In this document: positions 28,019 through 49,216 of the stretch, one piece after another | How positions within the stretch are numbered: the stretch's first letter is position 1 | Layout: each line of letters begins with the position of its first letter | DNA from: Acinetobacter suaedae | GTDB lineage: Bacteria; Pseudomonadota; Gammaproteobacteria; Pseudomonadales; Moraxellaceae | Assembly (NCBI RefSeq): GCF_008630915.1 | Contig: NZ_CP043909.1 | Span: forward strand, 2,170,001 to 2,234,000 | Length of the DNA stretch: 64,000 nt | Direction: 5' to 3' | Program-made: the position numbers and the translations under genes | The notes under the pieces: generated by a model | Told to the model about the DNA's origin: nothing | The model's input: only the letters and a program-made list of their open reading frames with translations | Databases searched by the model: none

Positions 28019-31000
28019 TTAGTTGATTACACCACTTACACCAATACGTACACTTGGCTCACCTTGTGATGCAGCTGCAACACCACCGGTAATTGACCAG
28101 CGACCATTATCCGAAGTTTTACGTAAGGTGACGCCGACTGCATTTTCACCGCCATGGTAAGCAGCACCCGCAGCATAGGTATATTTACCTGCAACAAATG
28201 GGGCTGCTTCCAATGCCATTGCTGCTGCAATACCTGCATTGGCTTTTTTCTCTACGCTATCAATACGCTGGTTTGTGTCGTAGAAGGCTTGTTGTAACTG
28301 GTCACCGAGGTTGGTAATACGGTTACCCAATTCCTGATTTGACTGGTTTAAAGTACCAATCGCATCATGGATATTGTCTTTTCCTGTACCACCAACGTTC
28401 TTGGTTTTGATGGTTCCATCCGGATTTACCGTAGTGTTACCACCGATGCTGTTCTTGATGCTGTCAGAGATATTATGGATCTGACCACCATTCACCGCAT
28501 CTTTAGAACCTTTTGCAATGGTCCCGTTATCTACACCCTTAACAACACGGTCGCCATCTTTACCTGCCATATTGACACTCTTACCACCAGTGTCTTTACC
28601 AACCGTGATTTCACCTTTCGGATCCTGTTGCTGAACAAGACCAGACTTACCATTGTTGATGTTGTTGATATTGTTCTGGATGTTCTGGATGTCATTGGTG
28701 TTCTTGTCAACATTCTGTTTAACATCCCACAATTGACCACCATTCACCGCATCTTTAGAACCTTGCTCAACCTTACCATCAGCAACATTCTTCAAGTTAG
28801 TGCCCTTATCGCCACCACCTAAAGTCACTGAGTTTTTATCAACATTGCCATCTTTGTCTTTGTCATACTTCACAGCATTATCAGACAAATCACCAATCTC
28901 TTTACCGATTTGGTCTTTAACATCATTGATTTGCTTGTCCAGCTGACCTTTATTCACAGCATCTTTCGCATCGACACCGTCAGCAACATTGGTAATTTTC
29001 TTACCACCAGCATCAACACCATTAATGGTGATACTTGGACCTCCTTTAATTACCAGGCCATTATTGTTCAACACTGTATTGCCCGTGGTAATGCTGTCGA
29101 ATTTCGCATCTTTCAACAATTCAATCTTGATGCCGTCTTTAGTGGTACGGGTAATCACATTTTCACCGCTGGTCTTGTCTTCTGCTGTTGCTGCATCAGC
29201 GCCACCTACGATGTTTAACTTGTCACCCAACTTACGGTGTACATCTTTACCCACATTGCCTGCAAAGTTCAGACCTTTGTTGGTCAGGTCATTTACACCA
29301 TTGGTAACTTTGTCATCAACTGACTTGATTGCATCATTGATGTTGTTTTTGCCTGTTCCACCAATGTTATTCGTCGTGATGCTACCATCCGGATTAACCG
29401 TGGTGTTACCACCAATGCTGTTCTTGATGCTGTCAGAAATATGCTTGATCTGACCGCCATTCACCGCATCTTTAGAACCTTGAGCAATTGAACCATCAGC
29501 AACATTGCTAATGACCTTGTTACCTGCATTGATGCCGTCTTTAGTGATGCTTGGGCCATCTTTGATGGTCAAGCCATTGTTGTTCAATACGCTGTCGCCA
29601 GTCGTTACGCTGTCTAAAGTCAGGTCTTTCTTGGTCGATACTTCGTAGTTCGTACTGCCATCTTTATTGGTCGTTTCTTTAACAACAATGTTGTCGCCTT
29701 CAGTCACTGTGGTTTTCGCTTTGGTTGCAGCGTCTTTTACATTGCTGATTGCATCGTTGATGTTGTTTTTACCTGTACCACCAATGTTATTCGTCGTGAT
29801 GCTACCGTCCGGATTTACCGTGGTGTTGCCACCAATACTGTTCCTGATGCTGTCAGAAATATGCTTGATCTGACCACCATTTACCGCATCTTTAGAACCC
29901 TTGGCAATTGAACCGTCAGCAACGTTAGTAATGACTTTGTTACCCGCATTGATACCATCTTTAGTAATGCTTGCACCATCTTTGATGGTTAAGCCGTTGT
30001 TGTTCAATACGCTGTCGCCAGTCGTTACGCTGTCGAACTTCGCATCTTTCAACAATTCAATCTTGATGCCGTCTTTAGTGGTACGGGTAATCACATTTTC
30101 ACCGCTGGTCTTGTCTTCTGCTGTTGCTGCATCAGCGCCACCTACGATGTTTAACTTGTCACCCAACTTACGGTGTACATCTTTACCCACATTGCCTGCA
30201 AAGTTCAGACCTTTGTTGGTCAGGTCATTTACACCATTGGTAACTTTGTCATCAACTGACTTGATTGCATCATTGATGTTGTTTTTGCCTGTTCCACCAA
30301 TGTTATTCGTCGTGATGCTACCATCCGGATTAACCGTGGTGTTACCACCAATGCTGTTCTTGATGCTGTCAGAAATATGCTTGATCTGACCGCCATTCAC
30401 CGCATCTTTAGAACCTTTGGCAATTGAACCGTCAGCAACATTGCTAATGACTTTATTACCTGCATTGATGCCATCTTTAGTGATGCTTGGACCATCTTTG
30501 ATGGTCAGGCCATTGTTGTTCAATACGCTGTCGCCAGTAGTGATGCTGTCGAACTTCGCGTCTTTCAACAATTCAATCTTTATACCATCTTTAGTGGTAC
30601 GGGTAATGACATTTTCACCACTGGTCTTGTCTTCTGCTGTTGCTGCATCAGCACCACCCACGATGTTTAACTTGTCACCCAACTTACGGTGTACATCTTT
30701 GCCTGCATTGCCTGCAAAGTTCAAACCTTTATTGGTGAGGTCATTTACACCATTAGTAACCTTGTCATCAACTGACTTGATCGCATCATTGATGTTGTTT
30801 TTGCCTGTACCACCAATGTTATTCGTCGTGATGCTACCGTCCGGATTCACCGTGGTGTTACCACCAATGCTGTTCTTGATGCTGTCAGAAATATGCTTGA
30901 TCTGACCGCCATTCACCGCATCTTTAGAACCCTTAGCAATTGAACCGTCAGCAACATTAGTAATGACTTTATTACCTGCATTGATGCCGTCTTTAGTGAT

Positions 31001-33772
31001 GCTTGGGCCATCTTTGATGGTTAAGCCGTTGTTGTTCAATACACTGTCGCCCGTGGTAATGCTGTCGAACTTCGCATCTTTCAACAATTCAATCTTTATA
31101 CCATCTTTAGTGGTACGGGTAATCACGTTTTCACCGCTGGTCTTGTCTTCTGCTGTTGCTGCATCAGCGCTACCTACGATGTTTAACTTGTCACCCAACT
31201 TACGGTGTACATCTTTACCCGCATTGCCTGCAAAGTTCAGACCTTTGTTTTCCAGCTCAGTCTTCGTATTGTCGATCTTACTGTTTAACTCAGTCTTGGT
31301 GTTATTGATCGTGTTGTTTAACTCAGTTTTGGTATCGGTAATCTGAGTCGTTAACTGATCTTTAGTGTCATTCAACTTATTGTTGGTATCTGTGATACGG
31401 TTAGCCAAGTCTTTCTTGGCATCATTCAAATTTTTATTGGTATCTGCAATTTGATTGCCCAAATCAGTTTTGGTGTTATCAATTTTCTGATCTAGATTGG
31501 TAATGTTTTTCGCATTTTGATTCACACGAGTATCAACATTCTTGAGCTGACGTACAGTCACTGCATCTGAATCAGCAGAACCATCTTCAACATTAGTAAT
31601 ACGACGCTCTTTTCCAGCTGAACCTACTGACACAACACCATTAGACATTGATGCATCACGGTTGGTCAGGAAAGAATTACCTGTTGCTTGAGTTGCAACA
31701 GCATCTTGACCTAATGCCACACTATTTTCCGCTTCAACACGACTGCGAGCACCTAATGCCACACCACCAGTAACCATTGATCGGGCGTCTTGTCCGACTG
31801 CAACAGCATTTTCCTGATCAGCAACGGCTCCACCACCAATCGCAGCAGAATTTTTACCTGTAGCTTGAGCACCACTACCGATTGCAGCTGCACCATCTCC
31901 TGTTGCCTTTGCACCTTGACCAGGTTTATTGCCCGAACCAATTGCTGTTGAGTTAGTCCCAGAAGCAACTGAGTTAATACCCATGGCTGATGCACCATCA
32001 CCTGTAGCCTGAGCCACAGCGCCAAAAGCAGCAGCGCCTTTTCCAGAAGCATTTGCCATAACACCAAATGCCGATGATGCATCACCAGTTGCTTTAGATG
32101 TCATACCAAAAGCCGAAGAAAATGCCCCTGTACCAACCGCTTGAACACCTACAGCAGTTGAACCATGATTTGCTTCTGTTGTTGGATAGTGTCCGGCCTT
32201 CAGCACACCACCTGTAATTTCAGTATAGGTTTTACTCAACTCAGCATCTTGGGCAATTTTATCAACATCATCTCCACCAATTGCAACTGATGAATTACCA
32301 CGAGCGATTACATCAGCACCAATCGCAACTGATTGATCACCAATCGCTTTAGTTTGGTCACCAATCGCAACTGATTGATTGCTGTAACCAGGTACAACAC
32401 CTTCTGCACCTCTAGTAGACGCATTGCGACCAATCGCAACGTCCCCACGACCAACCGTTTCACTACTACTACCCATTGAAATGGCACCAGAACCAACGGC
32501 TTGAGCATTACCACCTATTGCCATCGAATCACGACTAGAAGCTTTAGTGTTTACACCGACGGCTATTGAGTTTCTTCCTGTTGCACCGTCATTTTCAAAG
32601 TTGCCACCTTGCTGTCCATTATCATTGATACTGACATAATGAGTACGAGCTGCTTTTAGCTGACGTACCGTTGCTGCATCTGAATCTGCTGCACCATCAG
32701 CAACATTTTGAATACGACGTTCAGCGCCAGCACTACCCACAGATAACACACCTTTCGGCGCGACTTGATTCGTAAGAAAGCTTTCACCCGTTGCTTGTGT
32801 CGCTTTTGAGTCTTTGCCTAAAGCAATACTATTTTCTGCATCTGAACGTGCCCCTTTACCAACTGCAACACCACCTTCAAAAGTTGCTTCTGCTTGATCT
32901 CCAATCACAACTGCATGGTCTTTATTCGCTTTTGCACCTGTACCAATTGCAACTGACTTCTTGCCAGTTGATTCAGAGAAAGCCCCGATTGCCAAAGCAT
33001 TTTCCTGAGTTGCAACTGCACCGCCCCCAAATGCAATCGAATCTTTACCTGTTGCTTTTGTTGCCATTTTCGGTTGATATGCGGCCCCTGCCTGACCTGC
33101 AACTTCCTCAGCACTATCAATATCAGGAGAACCAATTGCAATTGAACGATAACCTTCTGCAGTTGCAGAGTGACCAATTGCTAGAGACCCTTTACCTGTT
33201 GCAGCCGCTACATTACCAATTGCTTGAGAAAAATCTCCTTTAGCAGCAGATTGACGACCAATTGCTAGAGCTGTATTTCCAGAAGATAAAGCAGCCGTAC
33301 CGATTGCCACGCCAGAGATATTTTGTGTTGTTGCATATGAACCAATAGCCGTTCCTAAGCTTTTCTCTACACTAGCGCCAGTACCTATGCTTACAGCTCC
33401 GCCCTGCTTCAAATTGCCTTCAAAAGCACCCTTTGAGTTATTATAAGGATTTTGGCGATTTGCAATATTTGCAGCAGTCGAGTCCAATGTCTTAGCACCA
33501 CAGCCTAATGCAATATCTTTAGCATTTGCTGTATTTGCGGTTCCTTCCCGACACATCATATTCGAACCTGAAATGGATGTACCTCTGCCCACTCCACCAT
33601 CAATATTAGTCGCCGCAAAAGCTGCTGGAGAAAAACTAACGACTCCCAATAAAACACTCGCTGATAAGTTAAAAGTTTTTGATTTGGTTTTTGTTCTGCT
33701 TTTGGCAATTTCTGAAGTTGCAACCCACGCACCAATTGATGCATTCCAAACCACTTTAAACACTTTATTCAT
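28019..33772 (-). CDS. ata: Trimeric autotransporter adhesin, Ata/YadA-like
   Basis: 1917-aa surface adhesin (type Vc secretion). Layout: extended signal peptide of the ESPR type ([21 protein letters not shown]..., cleavage near 53); YadA-like head of left-handed roll repeats ('[10 protein letters not shown]' type); a neck near residue 330 ('[28 protein letters not shown]'); a second head about 380-690; a second neck near 700; a short right-handed coiled coil about 735-845 built from 'TDTKTELN'-like repeats; a stalk of long, nearly identical repeats about 840-1605; further stalk; and a C-terminal YadA beta-barrel anchor (last ~100 residues, '[24 protein letters not shown]'). Likely binds host matrix and drives biofilm, as known for Ata. 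In operon with the downstream OmpA-family gene. Confidence 0.93.
28960..31250 (-). repeat. Long near-identical stalk repeats in the trimeric autotransporter gene
   Basis: A 172-codon (516-bp) unit starting 'NKGLNFAGN' and containing '[13 protein letters not shown]', '[24 protein letters not shown]' and '[19 protein letters not shown]' recurs with very few differences. Unit starts lie near 31240, 30720, 30205 and 29265. The third spacing (about 939 bp) contains a shorter partial unit with a unique insert ('[19 protein letters not shown]'). Such DNA repeats recombine and change stalk length. Confidence 0.88.
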
Positions 33773-40472: not shown

Positions 40473-40718
40473 TCATTTCTTATCAAAATAATCTTCTGGA
40501 TAGGGATCTGGACCTTTTAAATTTTTTCGATATTCCATGACACTAAATAGTCTGGTAAACCATTTATACTTGCTAAAGTTGCAGCAGCTCATACCACCTG
40601 ATTCTGAAAATAATGATACTAACGCTGTAGCACTTGCTTGTGATCTAAGCTTTGGGAGTTGACCTACAATGGCTTTAACAGACTCTATGTTTTGAACTAT
40701 GCCATAGCTGACTTTCAT
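40473..40718 (-). pseudogene. Truncated fourth copy of the probable T6SS immunity gene
   Basis: The first 40 or so codons match the first copy at 42878 almost exactly ('SVKAIVGQLPKLRSQASATALVSLFSESGGM'). Where the intact copies read GGMGAAATL, two G are missing, so the frame changes to 'SCCNFSKYKWFT' and the homologous frame ('AAATLASINGLPDY') continues out of phase until it stops. The remaining 81-aa frame ends in 'PDPYPEDYFDKK', unrelated to the other copies. No membrane segments remain. It looks like the decayed end of a tandem array. Its ATG overlaps the preceding stop by 1 nt. Confidence 0.75.
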
Positions 40719-41440
40719 TATCGATCAACTAAAGGCTGTGGATCATAATCTAAAAACTGAGTATAATCATGCACATCCTCATAAATACGATCTGTTTCTT
40801 TATCCTCATACGGTTGAGGATCATTTTTTATAAGCGCTTTATTTAGTGCATCTATATCTTTAACCCCAAGTATTTTATAAATTCGCTCTGACTCCTGTGC
40901 ATAACCTCTAAATTGTTTTTTTATACTTTCTCCAAGAAAAGAAATTATTATTGCAAAAATAATTAATCCTGATAAAAATAAAAATAAATCAAATCCTAAA
41001 AAAATTAATCCTAAAGCCATAAGCGTATTAATTCCAACATACATAAATAGAGTATTCTTATTATGAGCTTTATCGGAGATAGCCACAGTATGGCCAAAAG
41101 GAACAGCCATACCCAGTAATTTATTATTTTTATTCATGATTGCAAGTACATTAAAGTTCTGTTCTATATCCTCATCATAGACAACATAAACTTCTTCACC
41201 TTCTTTAAAAAATACCCCTGTAAACGCAGCGTAGAATGCTTCCCCATCAATTTCAAAATGAATATAGTAGCCTGGAAAGCCATTGATACCACTTAATGTT
41301 GCAGCTGCTCCCATACCTCCAGATTCAGCAAACATCGACACCAAAGCAGTTGCTCTCGCCTGTGTCCTTAGTTTGGGTAGCTCACTAACTATTGCATCGA
41401 CAAATTGGAGATTTTGAACTATGCCATAGATGACTTTCAT
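40718..41440 (-). CDS. Probable T6SS immunity membrane protein, third copy (intact)
   Basis: 240-aa protein: a soluble N-terminal domain ('VYGIVQNLQFV'-like start, 'SGGMGAAATLSGINGFPGYYIHFEIDGEAFYAAFTG', 'KEGEEVYVVYDEDIEQNFNVLAIMN'), two hydrophobic segments near residues 125-170, and a cytoplasmic tail ('SIKKQFRGYAQESERIYKILGV', ending 'DPQPLVDR'). It is one of four tandem paralogues immediately downstream of a VasX-like effector, so immunity against that effector or relatives is the likely role. Similar proteins are sometimes labelled putative T6SS effectors; position and membrane topology favour immunity here. Its start overlaps the stop of the previous copy by 1 nt. Confidence 0.7.
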   Translation of the reverse strand: MKVIYGIVQNLQFVDAIVSELPKLRTQARATALVSMFAESGGMGAAATLSGINGFPGYYIHFEIDGEAFYAAFTGVFFKEGEEVYVVYDEDIEQNFNVLAIMNKNNKLLGMAVPFGHTVAISDKAHNKNTLFMYVGINTLMALGLIFLGFDLFLFLSGLIIFAIIISFLGESIKKQFRGYAQESERIYKILGVKDIDALNKALIKNDPQPYEDKETDRIYEDVHDYTQFLDYDPQPLVDR

Positions 41441-41688
41441 TATCGATCAACTAAAGGCTGTGGATCATAATCTATAAACTGTGTATAATCATGCACTTCC
41501 TCATAAACACGATCTGTTTCTTTATCCTCATATGGCTGAGGATTATTTTTTATAAGCATTTTATTTAGTGCATCTATATCTGTAACCCCAAGTATTTTAT
41601 AAATTCGCTCTGACTCCTGTGCATAACCTCTAAATTGTTTTTTTATACTATGTCCTATTGAAAACATTAATACCATCGAAAAAACTAC

Positions 41689-41702
41689 TATATATATATA
41701 TA
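41689..41702 (-). repeat. (TA)7 dinucleotide tract in the second immunity copy
   Basis: Fourteen bases of TA repeat within the region coding for a membrane segment. Seven units leave the upstream and downstream parts out of frame; six or nine would put them in frame (given 8 or 11 G at 41756-41765). Confidence 0.85.
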
Positions 41703-41755
41703 TTCCATATTATCCATGCCAACAAAATAAGCCATTATACAGCCACCTATCGCTG

Positions 41756-41765
41756 CCCCCCCCCC
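41756..41765 (-). repeat. G10 homopolymer tract in the second immunity copy
   Basis: Ten consecutive C on the plus strand, i.e. G10 in the coding strand. It begins with the G of an ATG codon and forces a stop at CAG CGA TAG. Tracts of this length are typical of slipped-strand phase variation; miscounting during sequencing is also possible. Confidence 0.85.
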
Positions 41766-42143
41766 ATAAATACAGTATTCTTATTATGAGCCTTATCGGA
41801 GATAGCCACAGTATGGCCAAAAGGAACAACCATACCCAGTAATTTATTATTTTTATTCATGATCGCAAGTACATTAAAGTTCTGTTCTATATCCTCATCA
41901 TAGACAACATAAACCTCTTCACCTTCTTTAAAAAATATCCCTGTAAACGCAGCGTAGAATGCTTCCCCATCAATCTCAAAATGAATATAGTAGCCAGGAA
42001 AGCCATTGATACCACTTAATGTTGCAGCTGCTCCCATACCACCTGATTCAGCAAACATCGACACCAAAGCAGTTGCTGTCGCCTGTGATCTCAGTTTGGG
42101 TAGATCGCCAACTATTGCATCGACAAATTGGAGATTTTGGACT

Positions 42144-42878
42144 TTACCGTAGATGACTTTCATCAATTTTTACATCTACTAGTGGCTGAGGGTCATAAGA
42201 TAAAAACTGTGTATAATTATAAACATCGTCATACATACGATTGTTTTCATCTATATAGGCTTTCATTCCTGTTTTTTCTAGATCTTTTAGATCAGTTATC
42301 CCAAGTATTTTATAAATTCGTTCAGACTCTTCTGCATATCCTCTAAATTGTTTTTTAACACTGTATCCAACTGATAATGAAATAATAAAGGCAATCATTG
42401 TGTAATATATATATATATATATATCTTTTACACCTGATAATAGACCTGCGATTAAACCAAATATTGAAATTGCAATTCCCATATTTATACTTGTTCTATT
42501 ATGAGACTTATCGGACATAATCACTGTCTGTCCAAAAGGAACAGCCATACCTAGTAATTTATTATTTTTATTCATGATCGCAAGTACATTAAAGTTTTGT
42601 TCTATATCTTCATCATAGACAACATAAACCTCTTCACCTTCTTTAAAAAATATCCCTGTAAAAGCCGCATAAAACTCAATATCATCAATATAAAAATGAA
42701 TGTAGTATCCCGATGAACCAGTAATCCCGCCCAAAGTTGCAGCAGCTCCCATACCACCTGATTCTGAAAATAATGATACTAACGCTGTAGCACTTGCTTG
42801 TGATCTAAGCTTTGGGAGTTGACCTACAATGGCTTTAACAGACTCAATATTTCTCACTATTCCGAAGATAACTTTCAT
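42144..42878 (-). CDS. Probable T6SS immunity membrane protein, first copy (intact)
   Basis: 244-aa protein with the same plan as the later copies: soluble N-terminal domain ('SGGMGAAATLGGITGSSGYYIHFYIDDIEFYAAFTG', 'EVYVVYDEDIEQNFNVLAIMN'), two hydrophobic segments ('MGIAISIFGLIAGLLSG' and 'YYTMIAFIISLSVGYSV') and a cytoplasmic tail ('KKQFRGYAEESERIYKILGI'). It begins 5 bp after the effector stop, the usual place for a cognate immunity gene. The loop between the two membrane segments is encoded by an (AT)10 run ('DIYIYIY'). The C-terminus differs from its siblings ('VDVKIDESHLR') and overlaps the start of the second copy by about 20 nt. Confidence 0.72.
   Translation of the reverse strand: MKVIFGIVRNIESVKAIVGQLPKLRSQASATALVSLFSESGGMGAAATLGGITGSSGYYIHFYIDDIEFYAAFTGIFFKEGEEVYVVYDEDIEQNFNVLAIMNKNNKLLGMAVPFGQTVIMSDKSHNRTSINMGIAISIFGLIAGLLSGVKDIYIYIYYTMIAFIISLSVGYSVKKQFRGYAEESERIYKILGITDLKDLEKTGMKAYIDENNRMYDDVYNYTQFLSYDPQPLVDVKIDESHLR
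42405..42424 (-). repeat. (AT)10 dinucleotide tract in the intact first immunity copy
   Basis: Twenty bases of AT repeat inside the coding region, translated as alternating Ile-Tyr. Gain or loss of one unit would shift the frame between the two membrane segments and cut off the protein. Confidence 0.88.
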
Positions 42879-42883
42879 CTAAA

Positions 42884-45685
42884 TTATATTCCTATGACTT
42901 CTGCAAATGCTTGATTAAACGCTTCCAACTCTTTACCTTCATTTTGAAATTTTACTGCATCTATACCAAAAGCTGATTTTTTACACCATTTTTCCAATTC
43001 ATTTGGCATGAAAAAGGCTTTATAGGTGATCTCAATTGCAGTTACACCTAATATGATTAAATTAAGGCGTGCTAGCCAAACTACACTGCCCAAAAATGAG
43101 AAAAAACGATAAACATTAGTTCGAACTAATATTTCTGATAAACGAATTAATGTAGGGCGTTTTGTTAAATCTCCAATTTTCTGCAAAAAGTTAATAGATA
43201 CTATAGTATATCCAAAGGCTAGACCTGCATAAGTAGCACTACGTGCACCATATATAACCCCCAAGAAAGTATCTGTTTTTAAATTATCATTCATCTGCCT
43301 AAAATCATAAATCGCAAAAAAAGCACTTCCAATAATTGCAAAACTATTAGCGGCAAGTTTAATTGCATTGTGTGCTGCATGTTCAGTAGCTGCTGTAAAG
43401 ACACCGACCAATTCCAAACTGGCAGTAATCAAACCACATGCACCACCAAAGATCTGTAATTTTTGTTGTGCATCTATCGGCCGATCCAGTTGGAATATTA
43501 AATTAACTGCTTCTAACGCCATAACTAGAGAAGCAGTTCGGGTCGCACCTTTGTTCTTGGCATCATTTAAAATTGAAGTGACTTGTTTAGACACATCAGT
43601 TGGTGGTTTATAGTTAGGGTCTAAACTTGGCACAGCAAAAAACATGAGAGATTTTAAGTTAATCCCTTTATCTAAGACACCTGTACGCGCATAAAGGAAA
43701 GTACATACTTGAGTTGCCACTAAACGATCAGTACCACCAGCTTTCGCTTTTTGTGTCGCCACTCGAATAAACTCGGCACTCCAACGACCAATACGACCTA
43801 CAAAGGTTTTATCAAAGTTCGGCAACATATAATGTTTATTGGCATTGTTGGAAACCCAATCATCCCATGCCGCATCTAACGCCGCAATCGTCACGATAAA
43901 TTGCTTATAAGTACTTTGTGAGGTGTTCCAATCTGTATAATTTGTGACTGTACTAAAAAAGTCCTGTGTTCCCTGATTATAATGCTGTATTGCAGAATGA
44001 TGATTAAACAACACACTCCGCATAAAAATATTTTCAAGTGTAATCGTTTTCGTTTGAATCCATTGATCTATGAATTTTTGACCTTGTTCGGTAACACCAG
44101 TACCTTCCATCGCTTGCATCGTATATTCATAAAAAACGAAACCACTTTCTTTATGATTGGGGTCGAAAGCATGTAACTCATCAACCAACTGTTTTGATTG
44201 CAACCAAGTTAAATGATCTTTAGCAAGCGCAGCGGCATTTTTCATACCATTTTGGGTATGTAATGCTACATTTCTTTTAACTTCATCCAGCTTGTCAAGA
44301 TGTAATAACGGAACATACTTTTTCACCCATTCATCGGCGGCCTTGGTGGTATTTTCTTCTATACGCTGTTTTTCTAGCACTTTCGGATCAGTATTGAATA
44401 CCGTTGTTGTTTCATGTCGCCCTTTTACCCAATCTGATGATGACTTATTGATCGGATACATTGCAGGATCAACGATAAATCTCTGAGATGTATTATTTTG
44501 AGAAAATGTAGAACTTTTCTTATTAATTTTTTTTAAATTCTCCATCATCTGTTGTTGAGACTTTTGATCTCCCATTGCAGTTGCAAACTTCTTTTGTTGA
44601 TCTCCAATTCGTTTTGCCCAATCTTTTGCTTCCTGAATTGCTTTTGTTTTTAAACCTTGCTCAATAGATTCAATTAAAGGAATACTATTGAAACGTTGAT
44701 GGTTGCTGATACCATCTTTATAGCTATTCATATAAGCTGAAAGTTCAATAAACTGATCATTTCTACGTTCATTGAGTTCAATGGTTATTCCTAAAGCATC
44801 ATAAATGGCGACCCCACAGACGGCTTCAGGAAACACAGCAAATTTTTCGGAAATTTTCTGTTTTCGAGTTGAATTCACTTTCGAACTATATTTTTCAAAG
44901 TTTGGTGTAGGTACATGCTTATCAAAGACTTGTTGATTAAAACAATGGTTAGACTTTTGAGCAGATCGCCATTGATTAATATCAATTTTTTGCCATTTCT
45001 TTTCTGTCGCATATAATGCTTTATTTTTTCGATAGAGTTGTAGTCGTGCTTGGGTAAGAAAACCTTTAGAAAATAAAAGATAAGCAATTTTAGCTTTTGA
45101 TTTTTGGTATGGCGCAAGGCAAATCATAGAACTGTTGGCAAAGTGCTTCTCATTGGCACAGCCATAAGGTGTAGGCGCACAATCAGGATCAAGAGGATTT
45201 TTAATTTTCGCTAAAAAACCTTCTTCATTCACTCGATAGGCTAACCATCTATGCATTCCGTTTTCATATTCCACTAAAGCATATAGATAACCTACATTTA
45301 AATATTTCAAAGTGTACTTCGAGTAATGAATGCTTTTGTCACTCACATAGCCATTGAGCTGGGTTGGAAGTGATGGAAATTTTGAATCATTTTTTTTGGC
45401 AATCGCGTATCGCACAGGGAATAGATAAAAACTATCATCTTCCGCATGACAAAAAGGACAATCCTTTTTTTGCTCATTGACAACACCCGATGGCGTCGGC
45501 TGTATTGGGATCTTCTTAGGTACTACTTTGTGAGCATTTGGATTCAGTTCAGCTTTCTTTTGTTCAACCTTAGCCAAATCATATTTTTTTAAATTCTGTC
45601 CCCAAGAAATATTTTGATTTCCCTGACTACTTTTTGCATTTTGCAAATAAGGAGGCGCTTTTTTACTAGAATTTTTATTATCCAT
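42884..45685 (-). CDS. T6SS effector of the BTH_I2691/VasX-like type, probably membrane-active
   Basis: 933-aa protein. The N-terminal region matches the VasX/BTH_I2691 N-terminal domain: 'CPFCHAEDDSFYLFPVRYAIAKK', 'YTLKYLNVGYLYALVEYENG', 'WLAYRVNEEGFLAKI' (residues about 75-180). The long middle is helical and hydrophilic. The C-terminal 220 residues hold at least four hydrophobic segments ('IFGGACGLITASLELVGVF', 'SFAIIGSAFFAIYDF', 'SATYAGLAFGYTIVSINFL', 'VVWLARLNLIILGVTAIEI'), as expected for a colicin-like pore former. It starts inside the end of the DUF4123 adaptor gene (8-nt overlap) and is followed by an immunity array. Likely delivered by the VgrG encoded upstream. Confidence 0.82.
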   Translation of the reverse strand: MDNKNSSKKAPPYLQNAKSSQGNQNISWGQNLKKYDLAKVEQKKAELNPNAHKVVPKKIPIQPTPSGVVNEQKKDCPFCHAEDDSFYLFPVRYAIAKKNDSKFPSLPTQLNGYVSDKSIHYSKYTLKYLNVGYLYALVEYENGMHRWLAYRVNEEGFLAKIKNPLDPDCAPTPYGCANEKHFANSSMICLAPYQKSKAKIAYLLFSKGFLTQARLQLYRKNKALYATEKKWQKIDINQWRSAQKSNHCFNQQVFDKHVPTPNFEKYSSKVNSTRKQKISEKFAVFPEAVCGVAIYDALGITIELNERRNDQFIELSAYMNSYKDGISNHQRFNSIPLIESIEQGLKTKAIQEAKDWAKRIGDQQKKFATAMGDQKSQQQMMENLKKINKKSSTFSQNNTSQRFIVDPAMYPINKSSSDWVKGRHETTTVFNTDPKVLEKQRIEENTTKAADEWVKKYVPLLHLDKLDEVKRNVALHTQNGMKNAAALAKDHLTWLQSKQLVDELHAFDPNHKESGFVFYEYTMQAMEGTGVTEQGQKFIDQWIQTKTITLENIFMRSVLFNHHSAIQHYNQGTQDFFSTVTNYTDWNTSQSTYKQFIVTIAALDAAWDDWVSNNANKHYMLPNFDKTFVGRIGRWSAEFIRVATQKAKAGGTDRLVATQVCTFLYARTGVLDKGINLKSLMFFAVPSLDPNYKPPTDVSKQVTSILNDAKNKGATRTASLVMALEAVNLIFQLDRPIDAQQKLQIFGGACGLITASLELVGVFTAATEHAAHNAIKLAANSFAIIGSAFFAIYDFRQMNDNLKTDTFLGVIYGARSATYAGLAFGYTIVSINFLQKIGDLTKRPTLIRLSEILVRTNVYRFFSFLGSVVWLARLNLIILGVTAIEITYKAFFMPNELEKWCKKSAFGIDAVKFQNEGKELEAFNQAFAEVIGI

Positions 45686-46607
45686 TTACCACATCTCTTT
45701 TTAAAACTTCAATTTCTAAATCCGAATATGTATTGAGCGTCTCAAGGATTTGCTCATAATCTTCTTTATGCCACAAGGCTTTGATTTCTTCATGTTCAAT
45801 CAAATTTGGGCTGATCATATAAAACCAATATACAAGCTCACTAATAACACCAAATTCAATATTGGCTGAGTTTCCTCTTATCAAAATCAGGTGCTCATAA
45901 GTCCGCATCGGTTCAATTTGATTTGATGGAATATCTTTATTGATTAAATATTTATTAATACTATTCACATCTTCGCACATCATTAAAAAATCAATCACTG
46001 ACTTAGGATAAACATTGTTGAATTTAAATGCTGTTTCAAAAAAGGTTTTACGATAAAGTCCTGTAGGATGTAAATGCTCCCATGACTTATATGCTTTGAG
46101 ATGATGTAGATATAAAACCTCTTGCGCGAGGTTTTGAAATACATATTGAACTCGCGGATCATACCATCTTAAAAGATAAGATTTTTTAGAGTTTTCAAGT
46201 TGAGCGACTGAGTTCTTCATAAATGAAGTTTTTATGACGTCGAGTGATTCTGTACTATTCCCCCAGCCACAAACGATTTGACGAGTTGAGTCATAACCTT
46301 TTTGCTCCAATAAAAGTTCAATCAACTGAGGTACATACTCATTAAATTTTTTATCATTTCTTAGTCTTAGCAATGCTATTGGTTGCTTGGCTTGTTTAGA
46401 ACTAATAGGTTGTGCAATAAAAAATTTCTCAACAGCAACAAGCGGATCAAAATCATCAATAACTTCACTGAAGAGATCAATATCGACGGTACGATCAATG
46501 AGAAAATCAATCTCACCATCCGTTTTATAAATTGCTTCAAATCGAGCTAGAAGTAAGTCAGCATCAACCTTATCAATAGGTTCGCATAATTCAAATAAAT
46601 CTGACAT
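45678..46607 (-). CDS. DUF4123 T6SS effector adaptor/chaperone
   Basis: 309-aa protein with the DUF4123 hallmark 'SYLLRWYDPRVQYVFQNL' in its middle. DUF4123 proteins (Tap/TEC) load a specific effector onto its cognate VgrG before secretion. The gene lies directly between vgrG (2 bp upstream) and the VasX-like effector (8-nt overlap), which fits that function exactly. ATG 46607 (MSDLFELCEP) is preferred over an in-frame codon 12 nt upstream that overlaps the vgrG end. Confidence 0.85.
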   Translation of the reverse strand: MSDLFELCEPIDKVDADLLLARFEAIYKTDGEIDFLIDRTVDIDLFSEVIDDFDPLVAVEKFFIAQPISSKQAKQPIALLRLRNDKKFNEYVPQLIELLLEQKGYDSTRQIVCGWGNSTESLDVIKTSFMKNSVAQLENSKKSYLLRWYDPRVQYVFQNLAQEVLYLHHLKAYKSWEHLHPTGLYRKTFFETAFKFNNVYPKSVIDFLMMCEDVNSINKYLINKDIPSNQIEPMRTYEHLILIRGNSANIEFGVISELVYWFYMISPNLIEHEEIKALWHKEDYEQILETLNTYSDLEIEVLKRDVVNG

Positions 46608-46608
46608 T

Positions 46609-49216
46609 TTAGATCTCAACTAATGCTGCACCGTTTGTTGCTGCTGAATGTTGCTTCGCCGAACAATCAGGTAAATCAATCGCAGGAACACTGACAGATG
46701 CTCCACTCTTCAACAAATGCTGCCCTGCCTTTGCCTCAAACTTTCCACCAGTGGTTGGGAAAATTCCACCACCATTGATTTCAAGTTGTGAACCTCCCGC
46801 CAAGATCACAATTTTCTTTTTCGCCGTAATTTCAATGCGTCCCTCTGTTGAAGTCACTTGCAAAGCATTCCGAGCAATCAGATCAGCCCCATCACCTTGT
46901 GCCTGTATCTCAACCTTACCTTTGCCTGCAACTTGTTTGATTCCATTTTGAGCAGCAAATAAACTGATCTTTTGACTGGCTTGGGCAATCAAGTTCTTCT
47001 GTGTAGTCAGGTTAATACTGTCCCCTGCAAATTGGTTCAGTTGTCCATCTGCGGATAGATGGATGTCTTCTGAGGTGCTGAGTCCAATGCCATTCGGTGA
47101 ACTGAGTAACAGCATCGCTTGTTCAAAGCGGGCTATTTTCTCTTGGATCTGTTCTGCAAAGCTCTTGAGTTGTTCTAAGGCTTCGAGTTCATCCGTTTGT
47201 TGGTTCTTTGCCACTTCACTCAAGGCTTTGGCATTGTTTTGGTTGCTTTCCAGTTGCTGTTTGGCTGTTTGCGCTTCGAGATGATCACCTTCAGCTTGCG
47301 CTTGTACATGCGTGGTGATCAGTAAGCCTTCGCCTGCTCGAATCGCGCCCCATTGGTCTGTGCGTAGTTCAAAGCCTTCACCCCGGTCTTCGCTTTCTGC
47401 TTGGGCTTTGGGATGGCTCAGTTTGCCGAGATTGAGTTGGCTGGCTGCATGGCTACTTTGTAGTTGGGCACTGATCTGTCCGGTGGTGTCGTCAAAGCGT
47501 AGTTGGTTGTAGCCTGAGCCTTGGTATTCTTTGGATTTGATCCCTGCCAGTTTTTTGGTATCAGGTAATTGTCCTGCATTGTCGAATTTGCTTGGGCTGC
47601 GTTGTGCTTCGTGCAGTCGTCCGGTGACAAAGGGACGGTCAATGTTGCCATCAAAGAAGTCGATGATGACGATTTCACCAATGCGGGGGAGGAAGCGTGC
47701 GCCATAGCCTTCGCCTGCCCATGGGGTCAGTACATCCACCCAAGCTGAATCGGTGTCATTGTTGCTGCTGCCAGCACCACCATCGTGGCTATGGTCGTCA
47801 TTGCGGGTAAATAGGAAGCGAACTTTGATTCGTCCCCATTCATCCACATGGATTTCTTCGCCTTCGGGTCCCACCACTCTGGCACGTTGTGGGTGAGCAG
47901 TTGGACGGTGTTGCAGTGGGTGGTATTTCGGGTACGGTTTTGATGTTGCGGCGTTGTAGCGTCAGTTGGTTGGCTTGGCGTTCTTCTGGGTTTGTGTTTT
48001 GGTTATCTTGCCATTGGCTTTGGGTGATCAGCTGATGGATTTGTTGTTGTAAGTCTTTTGGGAGGTTGTTTTGGTTGTAGTAGCTTTTGGCAGTGATTAG
48101 AAATTCTTGGTCTGCACCACTGTGTTGGTCGATCTCTGGGTGTTCGTTGAGTTTAAACCAGTAGCCCACTTGGGTGTCTCGTACCGTGGTATTAGCGATA
48201 AATTGTTTGGCTTGGGCATCGTGGTAATGACTGAGGTGTTGGTTCAGTTTTTCGATTTGGGCGTTGCCTGAAGCGGTTGCACCATCTTCACCATTCAGGT
48301 CTTGCATCCATGCGGGAGTGAAGTGCCATGCATCTTCGAGTCCTAGACTAGCGTTGTCGTGTTGTTGGCTATGTTGGTGTTTGCTTTGGACGCTACCTGC
48401 CCCATCTTCTTGTTCTAGGGCATCAGCTTGCCAGCGTTGGATATGGACTGCCGTTGGTTGTAACGAACGTTCTGCAATGAGGCTGGTCATGCTGTCGTAT
48501 TGTTCGGTGGCACTGCTGCGGTGGTAGCGAATTGTTCTTCGATCTAGGGCTTGGTATTGGCTGTTGTCATCGATCAAGCGGAGTTTTTGGGCTTGGATTG
48601 GACTGTTGCTGTTGGCAACAGTGAGCTGTGCTTCGTCGATCAGCCAGTTGATGCCTTCGCTTCGGAGTAAGCGGGTAATGAAGTCGTAGTCGCTTTCATT
48701 GGCTTGCATTACAAAGGGACGGATGTCATAGTCTTGTTTGATCCCACCAAGGTCGAGTGTAAGACTCGATGCAAATAGTGGGCTGCGTTGTTGCCATTCT
48801 TTGAATAGGGTCTGTACGATGTCGAGTACATTTTTATTCATAAACACGCGGCTGTTTCGGCGTTTATGCCACAGCGCGGTTGCATCTTGTAGTTTGAGTT
48901 TATACAGCGTGAGGCTACCGTCAGATTGTCCTTGTACGGCTTCTGTGATAATCCCTGTGGTTCTAAACAGTGTACCTGTATCGGTGACTTGGTCTATCGC
49001 TGCCTGACAGCCGATGAATTGTTTTAATGGGATGTGGGCGTTAGTGGATAGGCAGATCAGTTCTGCAGTCATGCCCTGATTAATGGCATGCTGACCTTGA
49101 ATTTTTTGGAGGAAGACTTGTTGATTTAAGCTCGGATTGGCAAATTGTATGTGTATCGCACGTTTTTGTGCGGTAAGACCTAATTGGTCAAGCGCTTTGA
49201 ATATGTTGTTTAACAT
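46609..49216 (-). pseudogene. vgrG: T6SS spike protein VgrG, interrupted by a single-base frameshift
   Basis: Two overlapping frames together make one VgrG of about 870 residues: 49216 to about 47925 encodes the gp27/gp44-like base ('FVMQANESDYDFITRLLRSEGINWLIDE') and 47877 to 46609 encodes the gp5-like OB-fold and needle plus DUF2345 ('VGPEGEEIHVDEWGRIKVRFLFTRNDDHSHDGG', 'LFAAQNGIKQVAGKGKVEIQAQG'). At about 47925-47927 the coding strand reads CCCGAAATACCAC where CCCGAATACCAC (V-P-E-Y-H-P) would keep the frame: one extra A. The first frame then runs into a nonsense tail. Both halves are otherwise well preserved, so the lesion is recent, or a sequence error. There is no toxin extension at the C-terminus. 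Confidence 0.85.

What the first reader, a model, noticed from the sequence alone, without database searches (positions are those of the whole stretch)
40473..42878. Slippage-prone repeats (G10, (TA)7, (AT)10) inside a tandem T6SS immunity array
Directly visible: copy 2 is split by a ten-G tract and a (TA)7 tract. Frame arithmetic shows that 8 or 11 G together with 6 or 9 TA units would restore one reading frame joining the two parts. Copy 1 is intact but carries an in-frame (AT)10 tract at the corresponding membrane-loop position. Long homopolymer and dinucleotide tracts of this sort drive phase variation in other bacteria. On-off switching of an effector immunity protein would be a little-described form of self/non-self control between sister cells. 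It could also let an array of spare copies drift and be re-activated.
Basis: partly seen in the sequence, partly recalled or inferred. Interest (0 to 1): 0.75.

Follow-up and report, generated by a model that had tools for sequence, protein, structure and literature searches.

The report
Slippage-prone repeats in T6SS immunity genes
In this Acinetobacter genome and some relatives, genes that probably protect the cell from an injected pore-forming toxin carry unstable DNA repeats in one membrane-spanning segment, and spare copies are often out of frame while the copy beside an intact toxin gene is open; whether this is a useful on-off switch is unproven.

Summary
The repeats are real and exceptional: the G10 tract and both TA tracts are the only matches to G9 and to (TA)6 in the whole 3.37 Mb genome. 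The array is three tandem copies plus a remnant of a membrane-protein family (NF041560) behind a VasX/BTH_I2691-type effector; most likely immunity proteins. The tracts lie in one variable transmembrane hairpin. In 36 fetched family loci plus the window, hairpins hold 14 long tracts in 13.5 kb, flanking domains 0 in 42 kb, surrounding DNA 2 in 338 kb; unit lengths are 1, 2, 5 or 8 nt, never a multiple of three. Homologous copies differ in tract length and frame between genomes. Copies directly behind an intact effector ORF are open in 18 of 18 cases; of 51 other complete copies 16 are broken. I read this as a mutation-prone hairpin: frame-breaking slips are purged where self-protection needs the gene and persist, perhaps reversibly, in spares. 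Shorter runs are explained by composition. Switching within one population could not be tested, and drift of redundant copies is a serious rival. The phase-variation idea is partly supported, for spare copies rather than the cognate one.

The parts
42144..42878 (-). Copy 1, open, 244 aa; effector-adjacent, presumed cognate immunity gene
   Evidence: NF041560 103.5 bits, cut-off 90; directly behind the effector
42369..42488 (-). Variable transmembrane hairpin of copy 1 (residues 131-170)
   Evidence: mean pairwise identity 0.31-0.35 in 38 full-length relatives
42405..42424 (-). (AT)10 tract, in frame
   Evidence: one of only two (TA)>=6 tracts in the genome
41747..42166 (-). Copy 2, N-terminal part, 139 aa
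   Evidence: 77.3 bits to NF041560, below the cut-off by itself
41756..41765 (-). G10 tract of copy 2, out of register
   Evidence: only G>=9 in the genome; frames
41689..41703 (-). TA tract (15 nt) of copy 2, out of register
41443..41709 (-). Copy 2, C-terminal part in another frame (89-codon open frame)
40718..41440 (-). Copy 3, open, 240 aa, no long tract
   Evidence: NF041560 113.5 bits
40473..40718 (-). 81-aa deletion remnant with ends of two family branches
42884..45685 (-). Effector, 933 aa, VasX_N and BTH_I2691 family
   Evidence: PF20249 62.2 bits over cut-off 27; NF041559 327.2 bits over cut-off 150
45678..46619 (-). DUF4123-like adaptor (weak match)
   Evidence: PF13503 23.2 bits, just under its cut-off 25.8
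46609..49216 (-). VgrG in two overlapping ORFs (46609-47877, 47840-49216), frameshifted against two relatives

Best explanation
The genes are tandem immunity proteins against a pore-forming T6SS effector of the VasX/BTH_I2691 kind: a conserved N-terminal domain, a fast-evolving transmembrane hairpin and a conserved C-terminal domain. The hairpin, which I infer to be the membrane-embedded recognition part, is where long tandem repeats of non-triplet units arise and slip. A slip that breaks the frame of the copy guarding against the cell's own effector exposes that cell to its siblings and is removed. In spare or orphan copies such slips persist, so these copies differ in reading state between strains and may return by further slips. 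Shown: location and rarity of the tracts, length and frame differences between homologous copies, open state of effector-adjacent copies. Inferred: immunity role, recognition role of the hairpin, purging by kin killing. Unknown: rate and reversibility in one population, and whether switching is adaptive.
For: Only tracts of their class in the genome, all in this array. Strict tracts 14 in 13.5 kb of hairpin, 0 in 28.5 kb N, 0 in 13.8 kb C, 2 in 338 kb flank; in 53 open copies 9 long tracts other than A/T homopolymers, codon redraws at most 3 in 1000 rounds. Homologue in G038 is 10 nt shorter at a TATTT tract and broken, four others are open. 11 of 16 indels of 30 close pairs in hairpins, substitution densities alike (Fisher p 0.0003). 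15 of 22 frameshifts in hairpins, hand count. Effector-adjacent copies 18 open, 0 broken; others 35 open, 16 broken, p 0.007. Two broken homologues keep 11 synonymous to 2 nonsynonymous codon changes outside the hairpin.
Against: No within-population data. Short runs are no more frequent than amino acids and codon use predict (22 against 16.8 +- 3.0 or 23.4), and the total of long tracts (14) is within dinucleotide shuffles (mean 8.9, maximum 18) because shuffles make many T-runs. Six of the nine tracts in open copies are related pentanucleotide tracts, all at five units, so tract length can also stay fixed. Seven of 22 frameshifts lie outside the hairpin, as plain decay would give. Close pairs and sister genomes are not independent. 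The immunity role was not tested, and NCBI's own text for the family says putative effector.
Confidence: 0.55

Rival explanations
1. Neutral decay. Spare copies are redundant, and the AT-rich membrane-coding hairpin is simply the likeliest place for a first frameshift. Nothing switches back.
For: Broken copies only among those not behind an intact effector; arrays without an effector or with a remnant of it (G138, G037, G038) hold broken copies; short-run density is compositional; some copies have several lesions or lesions outside the hairpin (G137, G093, G095).
Against: Seven of the nine open copies with long tracts are effector-adjacent, so tracts are not a mark of dying genes. The two broken homologues of G096 and G131 kept codon constraint outside the hairpin. 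Units of long tracts are never multiples of three.
Confidence: 0.35
2. Adaptive phase variation: the tracts are kept because switching immunity on and off pays.
For: Non-triplet units, length and frame differences between strains and species.
Against: No population data; cognate copies are open in 18 of 18; an OFF cognate copy would be killed by siblings; the pentanucleotide tract has the same length in open copies of four genomes.
Confidence: 0.25
3. Repeats as raw material for hairpin change: in-frame gains and losses alter the helix and so the specificity; frame loss is a by-product.
For: Open-to-open pairs differ by 3 or 6 nt in the hairpin (G095/G097, G062/G069, G095/G096, G038/G096); the hairpin is the least conserved segment; copies 2 and 3 are 93-97% identical outside and 48% inside the hairpin.
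Against: If in-frame change were the gain, triplet units should be common; none is seen among long tracts.
Confidence: 0.3
4. Assembly error in the homopolymer and dinucleotide runs of this genome.
For: Long runs are error-prone (general knowledge); VgrG nearby differs from two relatives by one base and is split.
Against: Relatives in other strains and species end in the same hairpin, some at the same kinds of tract; the genome is one contig, 100% complete. Of eight neighbouring or overlapping ORFs checked, five match families over nearly their length, three match nothing and cannot be judged.
Confidence: 0.08

Closest known systems
Orphan T6SS immunity gene arrays of Vibrio cholerae (PMC5361080, passages seen)
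   Same: Several immunity genes behind one effector; remnants of displaced effectors beside arrays (here G037 and G038)
   Different: In the passages seen, no repeat tracts; those arrays mix immunity types of different effectors, here the copies are one family
Tke5-Tki5 of Pseudomonas putida (PMC12909789, passages seen)
   Same: BTH_I2691-family pore-forming effector with adaptor, VgrG and immunity gene in one cluster
   Different: Single immunity gene named there; I did not compare the Tki5 sequence with these copies
Phase-variable contingency genes with simple repeats (recalled; PMC11868660 seen as a listing only)
   Same: Non-triplet repeats inside genes whose unit number sets the reading frame
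   Different: Switching in a clone not shown here; the target is an immunity gene, not a surface structure
MafB/MafI toxin-immunity islands of Neisseria (PMC4287609, passages seen)
   Same: Toxin followed by immunity genes, with spare immunity genes in the island
   Different: The only slipped-strand passage there is a reference on a capsule gene, not on immunity genes

Membership tests
NCBIfam NF041560 (T6SS_Burk_ExIF) | score over the curated cut-off of 90 bits | tested here: met
   copy 1 103.5, copy 3 113.5 bits; the copy-2 N part alone 77.3, below it
BTH_I2691 / VasX effector family | NF041559 and VasX_N over their cut-offs | tested here: met
   327.2 over 150; 62.2 over 27
T6SS immunity protein | gene directly behind the effector, membrane protein fit for a pore-former | tested here: met
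   (two long helices at 119-148 and 153-191 in a low-confidence model, mean pLDDT 53)
T6SS immunity protein | protects against the effector | not testable with these tools
   needs an assay
Orphan immunity array | several immunity genes per effector, with displaced effector remnants | tested here: met
   three copies and a remnant in the window; C-terminal effector remnants of 136 and 363 aa in G037 and G038
Phase-variable contingency locus | non-triplet repeat tract in the gene | tested here: met
Phase-variable contingency locus | tract length and frame differ between related genomes | tested here: met
   G038 against four genomes; P0045 against copy 2 at protein level
Phase-variable contingency locus | frequent, reversible change within a clone | not testable with these tools
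   no reads or clone series held
Phase-variable contingency locus | change of phenotype with tract state | not testable with these tools
   needs an assay

The most novel reading that the evidence does not exclude
Immunity arrays of this family are a repeat-driven archive: spare immunity specificities are switched off and on by slippage in the hairpin, so a clone hedges against kin effectors it may meet, while kin killing itself removes cells that slip in the cognate gene. That would be phase variation of interbacterial immunity policed by the clone's own weapon.
Probability: 0.27. Interest if true: 0.82.

Novelty: new variant of a known kind. Interest (0 to 1): 0.6.

Why it matters
If the switching is real, a bacterial clone would vary which siblings and strangers can kill it, and T6SS self-recognition would be partly a matter of chance. 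Even if it is only drift, the pattern is a natural test of how strongly kin killing keeps an immunity gene open: open in 18 of 18 copies behind an intact effector ORF, broken in 16 of 51 others.

Tried and rejected
Viral contigs and plasmids: no relative of the query found. Structure: poor model (mean pLDDT 53) and no PDB match at E 0.001, so no fold claim. Short runs (T8 and the like) as evidence: rejected, composition explains them. G runs as a sign of phase variation in this genus: rejected by themselves. Whole-hairpin exchange as a general rule: only 2 of 168 pairs with N domains at least 80% alike have similar flanks and an unlike hairpin, one of them copy 2 against copy 3. The effector stretch 751-900 as the most variable part of the effector: true against P0058 only; among nine effectors residues 361-450 vary more. 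Papers: five searches of the held library for slippage or phase variation in T6SS immunity genes or Acinetobacter showed no report of it in the listings; the library lacks most subscription papers.

Limits and dropped rows. Protein searches see only lengths of 0.55-1.75 times the query, so breaks before about residue 134 or 76 are hidden. Of 55 proteins, 38 were taken as full length; of the other 17, 13 end in the hairpin (2 after MGGG, 7 in an IYIY-like stretch, 4 elsewhere in it); P0042, P0044, P0048 and P0054 lie on contigs under 1 kb and may be cut by the contig end. The other four are P0018, P0040, P0052 and P0055. Place lists were cut short; among listed places three lie in family copies (G000, G094, G076). 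Counts use 36 fetched loci plus the window; searches left out seven loci with only fragments or contig-cut pieces (L106, L107, L112, L113, L115, L116, L117). The 22 frameshifts are a hand count and include L036, which one search lists as two fragments; one in-frame stop (L112) was not counted. One of the 11 hairpin indels is copy 2 against copy 3, whose hairpins hardly align. The 16 broken copies include the window's deletion remnant. Sister genomes (G062/G069, G014/G068) count separately.

Full report
What is there. The window lies in a 3,373,643-base single-contig genome. The closest named protein to copy 1, P0002 (97%), is from Acinetobacter haemolyticus, so I take the host to be that species or very near; the genome itself is unnamed. 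On the minus strand stand VgrG (in two ORFs), a DUF4123-like adaptor (weak match), a 933-aa effector with VasX_N and BTH_I2691-family matches, three tandem copies of the family NF041560 and a short remnant. NCBI describes NF041560 as a putative effector; its place behind the effector and its membrane hairpin argue for immunity. In Tke5-Tki5, a studied member of the effector family, the immunity protein neutralises the helical pore region (PMC12909789, passages).

The observation. In the whole genome nine Gs in a row occur only in the copy-2 tract and six TA units only in the two TA tracts of this array. In the genus TATATATATATATA is found in 10 of 173 genomes, this one included, while G9 is found in 117 of 173. 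Copy 2 is in three successive frames, so both of its tracts are out of register.

The hairpin. In 38 full-length relatives the ten-residue blocks from 131 to 170 have mean pairwise identities of 0.31-0.35; the other blocks range from 0.44 (201-210) to 0.91. Copies 2 and 3 of the window are 95% identical in DNA in the N domain, 93-97% in the C domain and 48% in the hairpin. The effector against P0058 is 80-100% identical per 30-residue block up to residue 750 and 50-80% in 751-900; but among nine effectors the least conserved stretch is 361-450, so a matching variable part in the effector is only a lead.

Repeats across the family. The family profile matches in 52 of 173 Acinetobacter genomes, 24 of them over the curated cut-off. 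I worked on 36 fetched loci plus the window. With loose thresholds hairpins hold 37 tracts in 13.5 kb, N domains 8 in 28.5 kb, C domains 3 in 13.8 kb, flanks 101 in 338 kb; membrane segments of other genes hold 13 in 15.3 kb. But redrawing codons for the same amino acids gives 16.8 +- 3.0 (23.4 with the hairpins' own codon use) against 22 observed in open copies, so short runs are no evidence. With strict thresholds there are 14 in hairpins, none in N or C domains and 2 in flanks. Thirteen of the 14 are not T-runs: two G9, one G10, the two TA tracts of the window, seven pentanucleotide tracts and an 8-mer repeated seven times in G046 (A. lanii by its contig length). Dinucleotide shuffles made tracts other than T-runs 91 times in 1000 rounds, though with T-runs their total (mean 8.9, maximum 18) is as large as observed. 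In 53 open copies there are 9 long tracts other than A/T homopolymers, codon redraws gave at most 3 in 1000 rounds; six of the nine are related pentanucleotide tracts. No long tract in a hairpin has a unit divisible by three.

Tract length and frame differ between homologous copies. In G131, G096, G069 and G062 an open copy carries five TATTT units. In G038 the homologous copy, 93.5-95.5% identical, is 10 nt shorter at exactly that tract, has no other internal indel in the roughly 260 bases aligned, and is broken (state). G095 and G097, both open, differ by 6 nt at a like tract. Two broken homologues in G096 and G131 differ by two single-T indels in T-runs and no other indel; outside the hairpin they show 5 synonymous and 0 nonsynonymous changes in the N part and 6 and 2 in the C part. 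In 30 pairs of at least 88% identity the hairpins have 11 of 16 indels in 5.5 of 22.4 kb, with substitution densities alike in the three domains (Fisher p 0.0003; pairs not independent). By hand count 15 of 22 frameshifts fall in the hairpin, 7 elsewhere. Of 17 relatives not taken as full length, 13 end in the hairpin. P0045, 99% identical over 98% of the copy-2 N part, reads on beyond the Gly-Gly-Gly of the G tract and ends shortly after the IYIY stretch, so the counterpart of copy 2 differs in frame between strains. This is protein-level evidence, and P0045 is tied to A. haemolyticus only by sharing a contig length with P0024.

Which copies are broken. I sorted complete copies by whether they directly follow an effector ORF of at least 700 aa. 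Effector-adjacent: 18 open, 0 broken. Others: 35 open, 16 broken, besides 8 fragments (Fisher p 0.007). In G037 and G038 the broken copy next to effector sequence stands behind a remnant only. Of nine open copies with long tracts seven are effector-adjacent, copy 1 of the window among them. So tracts are not a mark of dead genes, but frame loss is so far seen only in copies the cell can spare.

Interpretation. The best reading is a mutation-prone, fast-evolving recognition hairpin under two regimes: kin killing keeps the cognate copy open, while spare copies drift through open and broken states. Whether changes in spare copies are reversible and useful cannot be decided from assemblies. For the cognate copy I see no sign of switching. 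VgrG of this cluster is itself frameshifted against two relatives; five other VgrG genes and one VipB gene are open in the genome, so whether this strain delivers this effector is uncertain.

Novelty. Immunity arrays, orphan immunity and repeat-driven phase variation are known separately. Their combination in a T6SS immunity family did not appear in the listings of five searches of the held library. I call it a new variant of a known kind.

Noticed in passing
window 46609-49216: VgrG beside the effector is split by a one-base difference from two relatives, while five other VgrG genes in the genome are open.
   Followed up: partly
   Followed up: partly
L034 2192-5486 and L052 3910-4998: Other ORFs stand in front of C-terminal remnants of the BTH_I2691-type effector (136 and 363 aa), as if the effector had been displaced.
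   Followed up: partly
L114 5268-5978 (G000:C1:1991291-1991932): A second, distant family member, open for 250 aa, elsewhere in the own genome with no effector match beside it.
   Followed up: partly
P0007, P0015, P0018, P0022, P0034, P0035: Public sources name these family members 'transposase', which looks like a misannotation.
   Followed up: no
window 42884-45685: Among nine effectors, residues 361-450 are the least conserved (0.36-0.43); against P0058 the differences gather in 751-900.
   Followed up: no
L094 1500-1519 and L095 1501-1515: Long TA tracts in other Acinetobacter genomes also read IYIYI in membrane proteins; these two look like polysaccharide polymerase and flippase by eye only.
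   Followed up: no
window 28019-33772: A 1917-aa ORF with internal repeats that looks like a trimeric autotransporter adhesin (recalled type, no family search).
   Followed up: no
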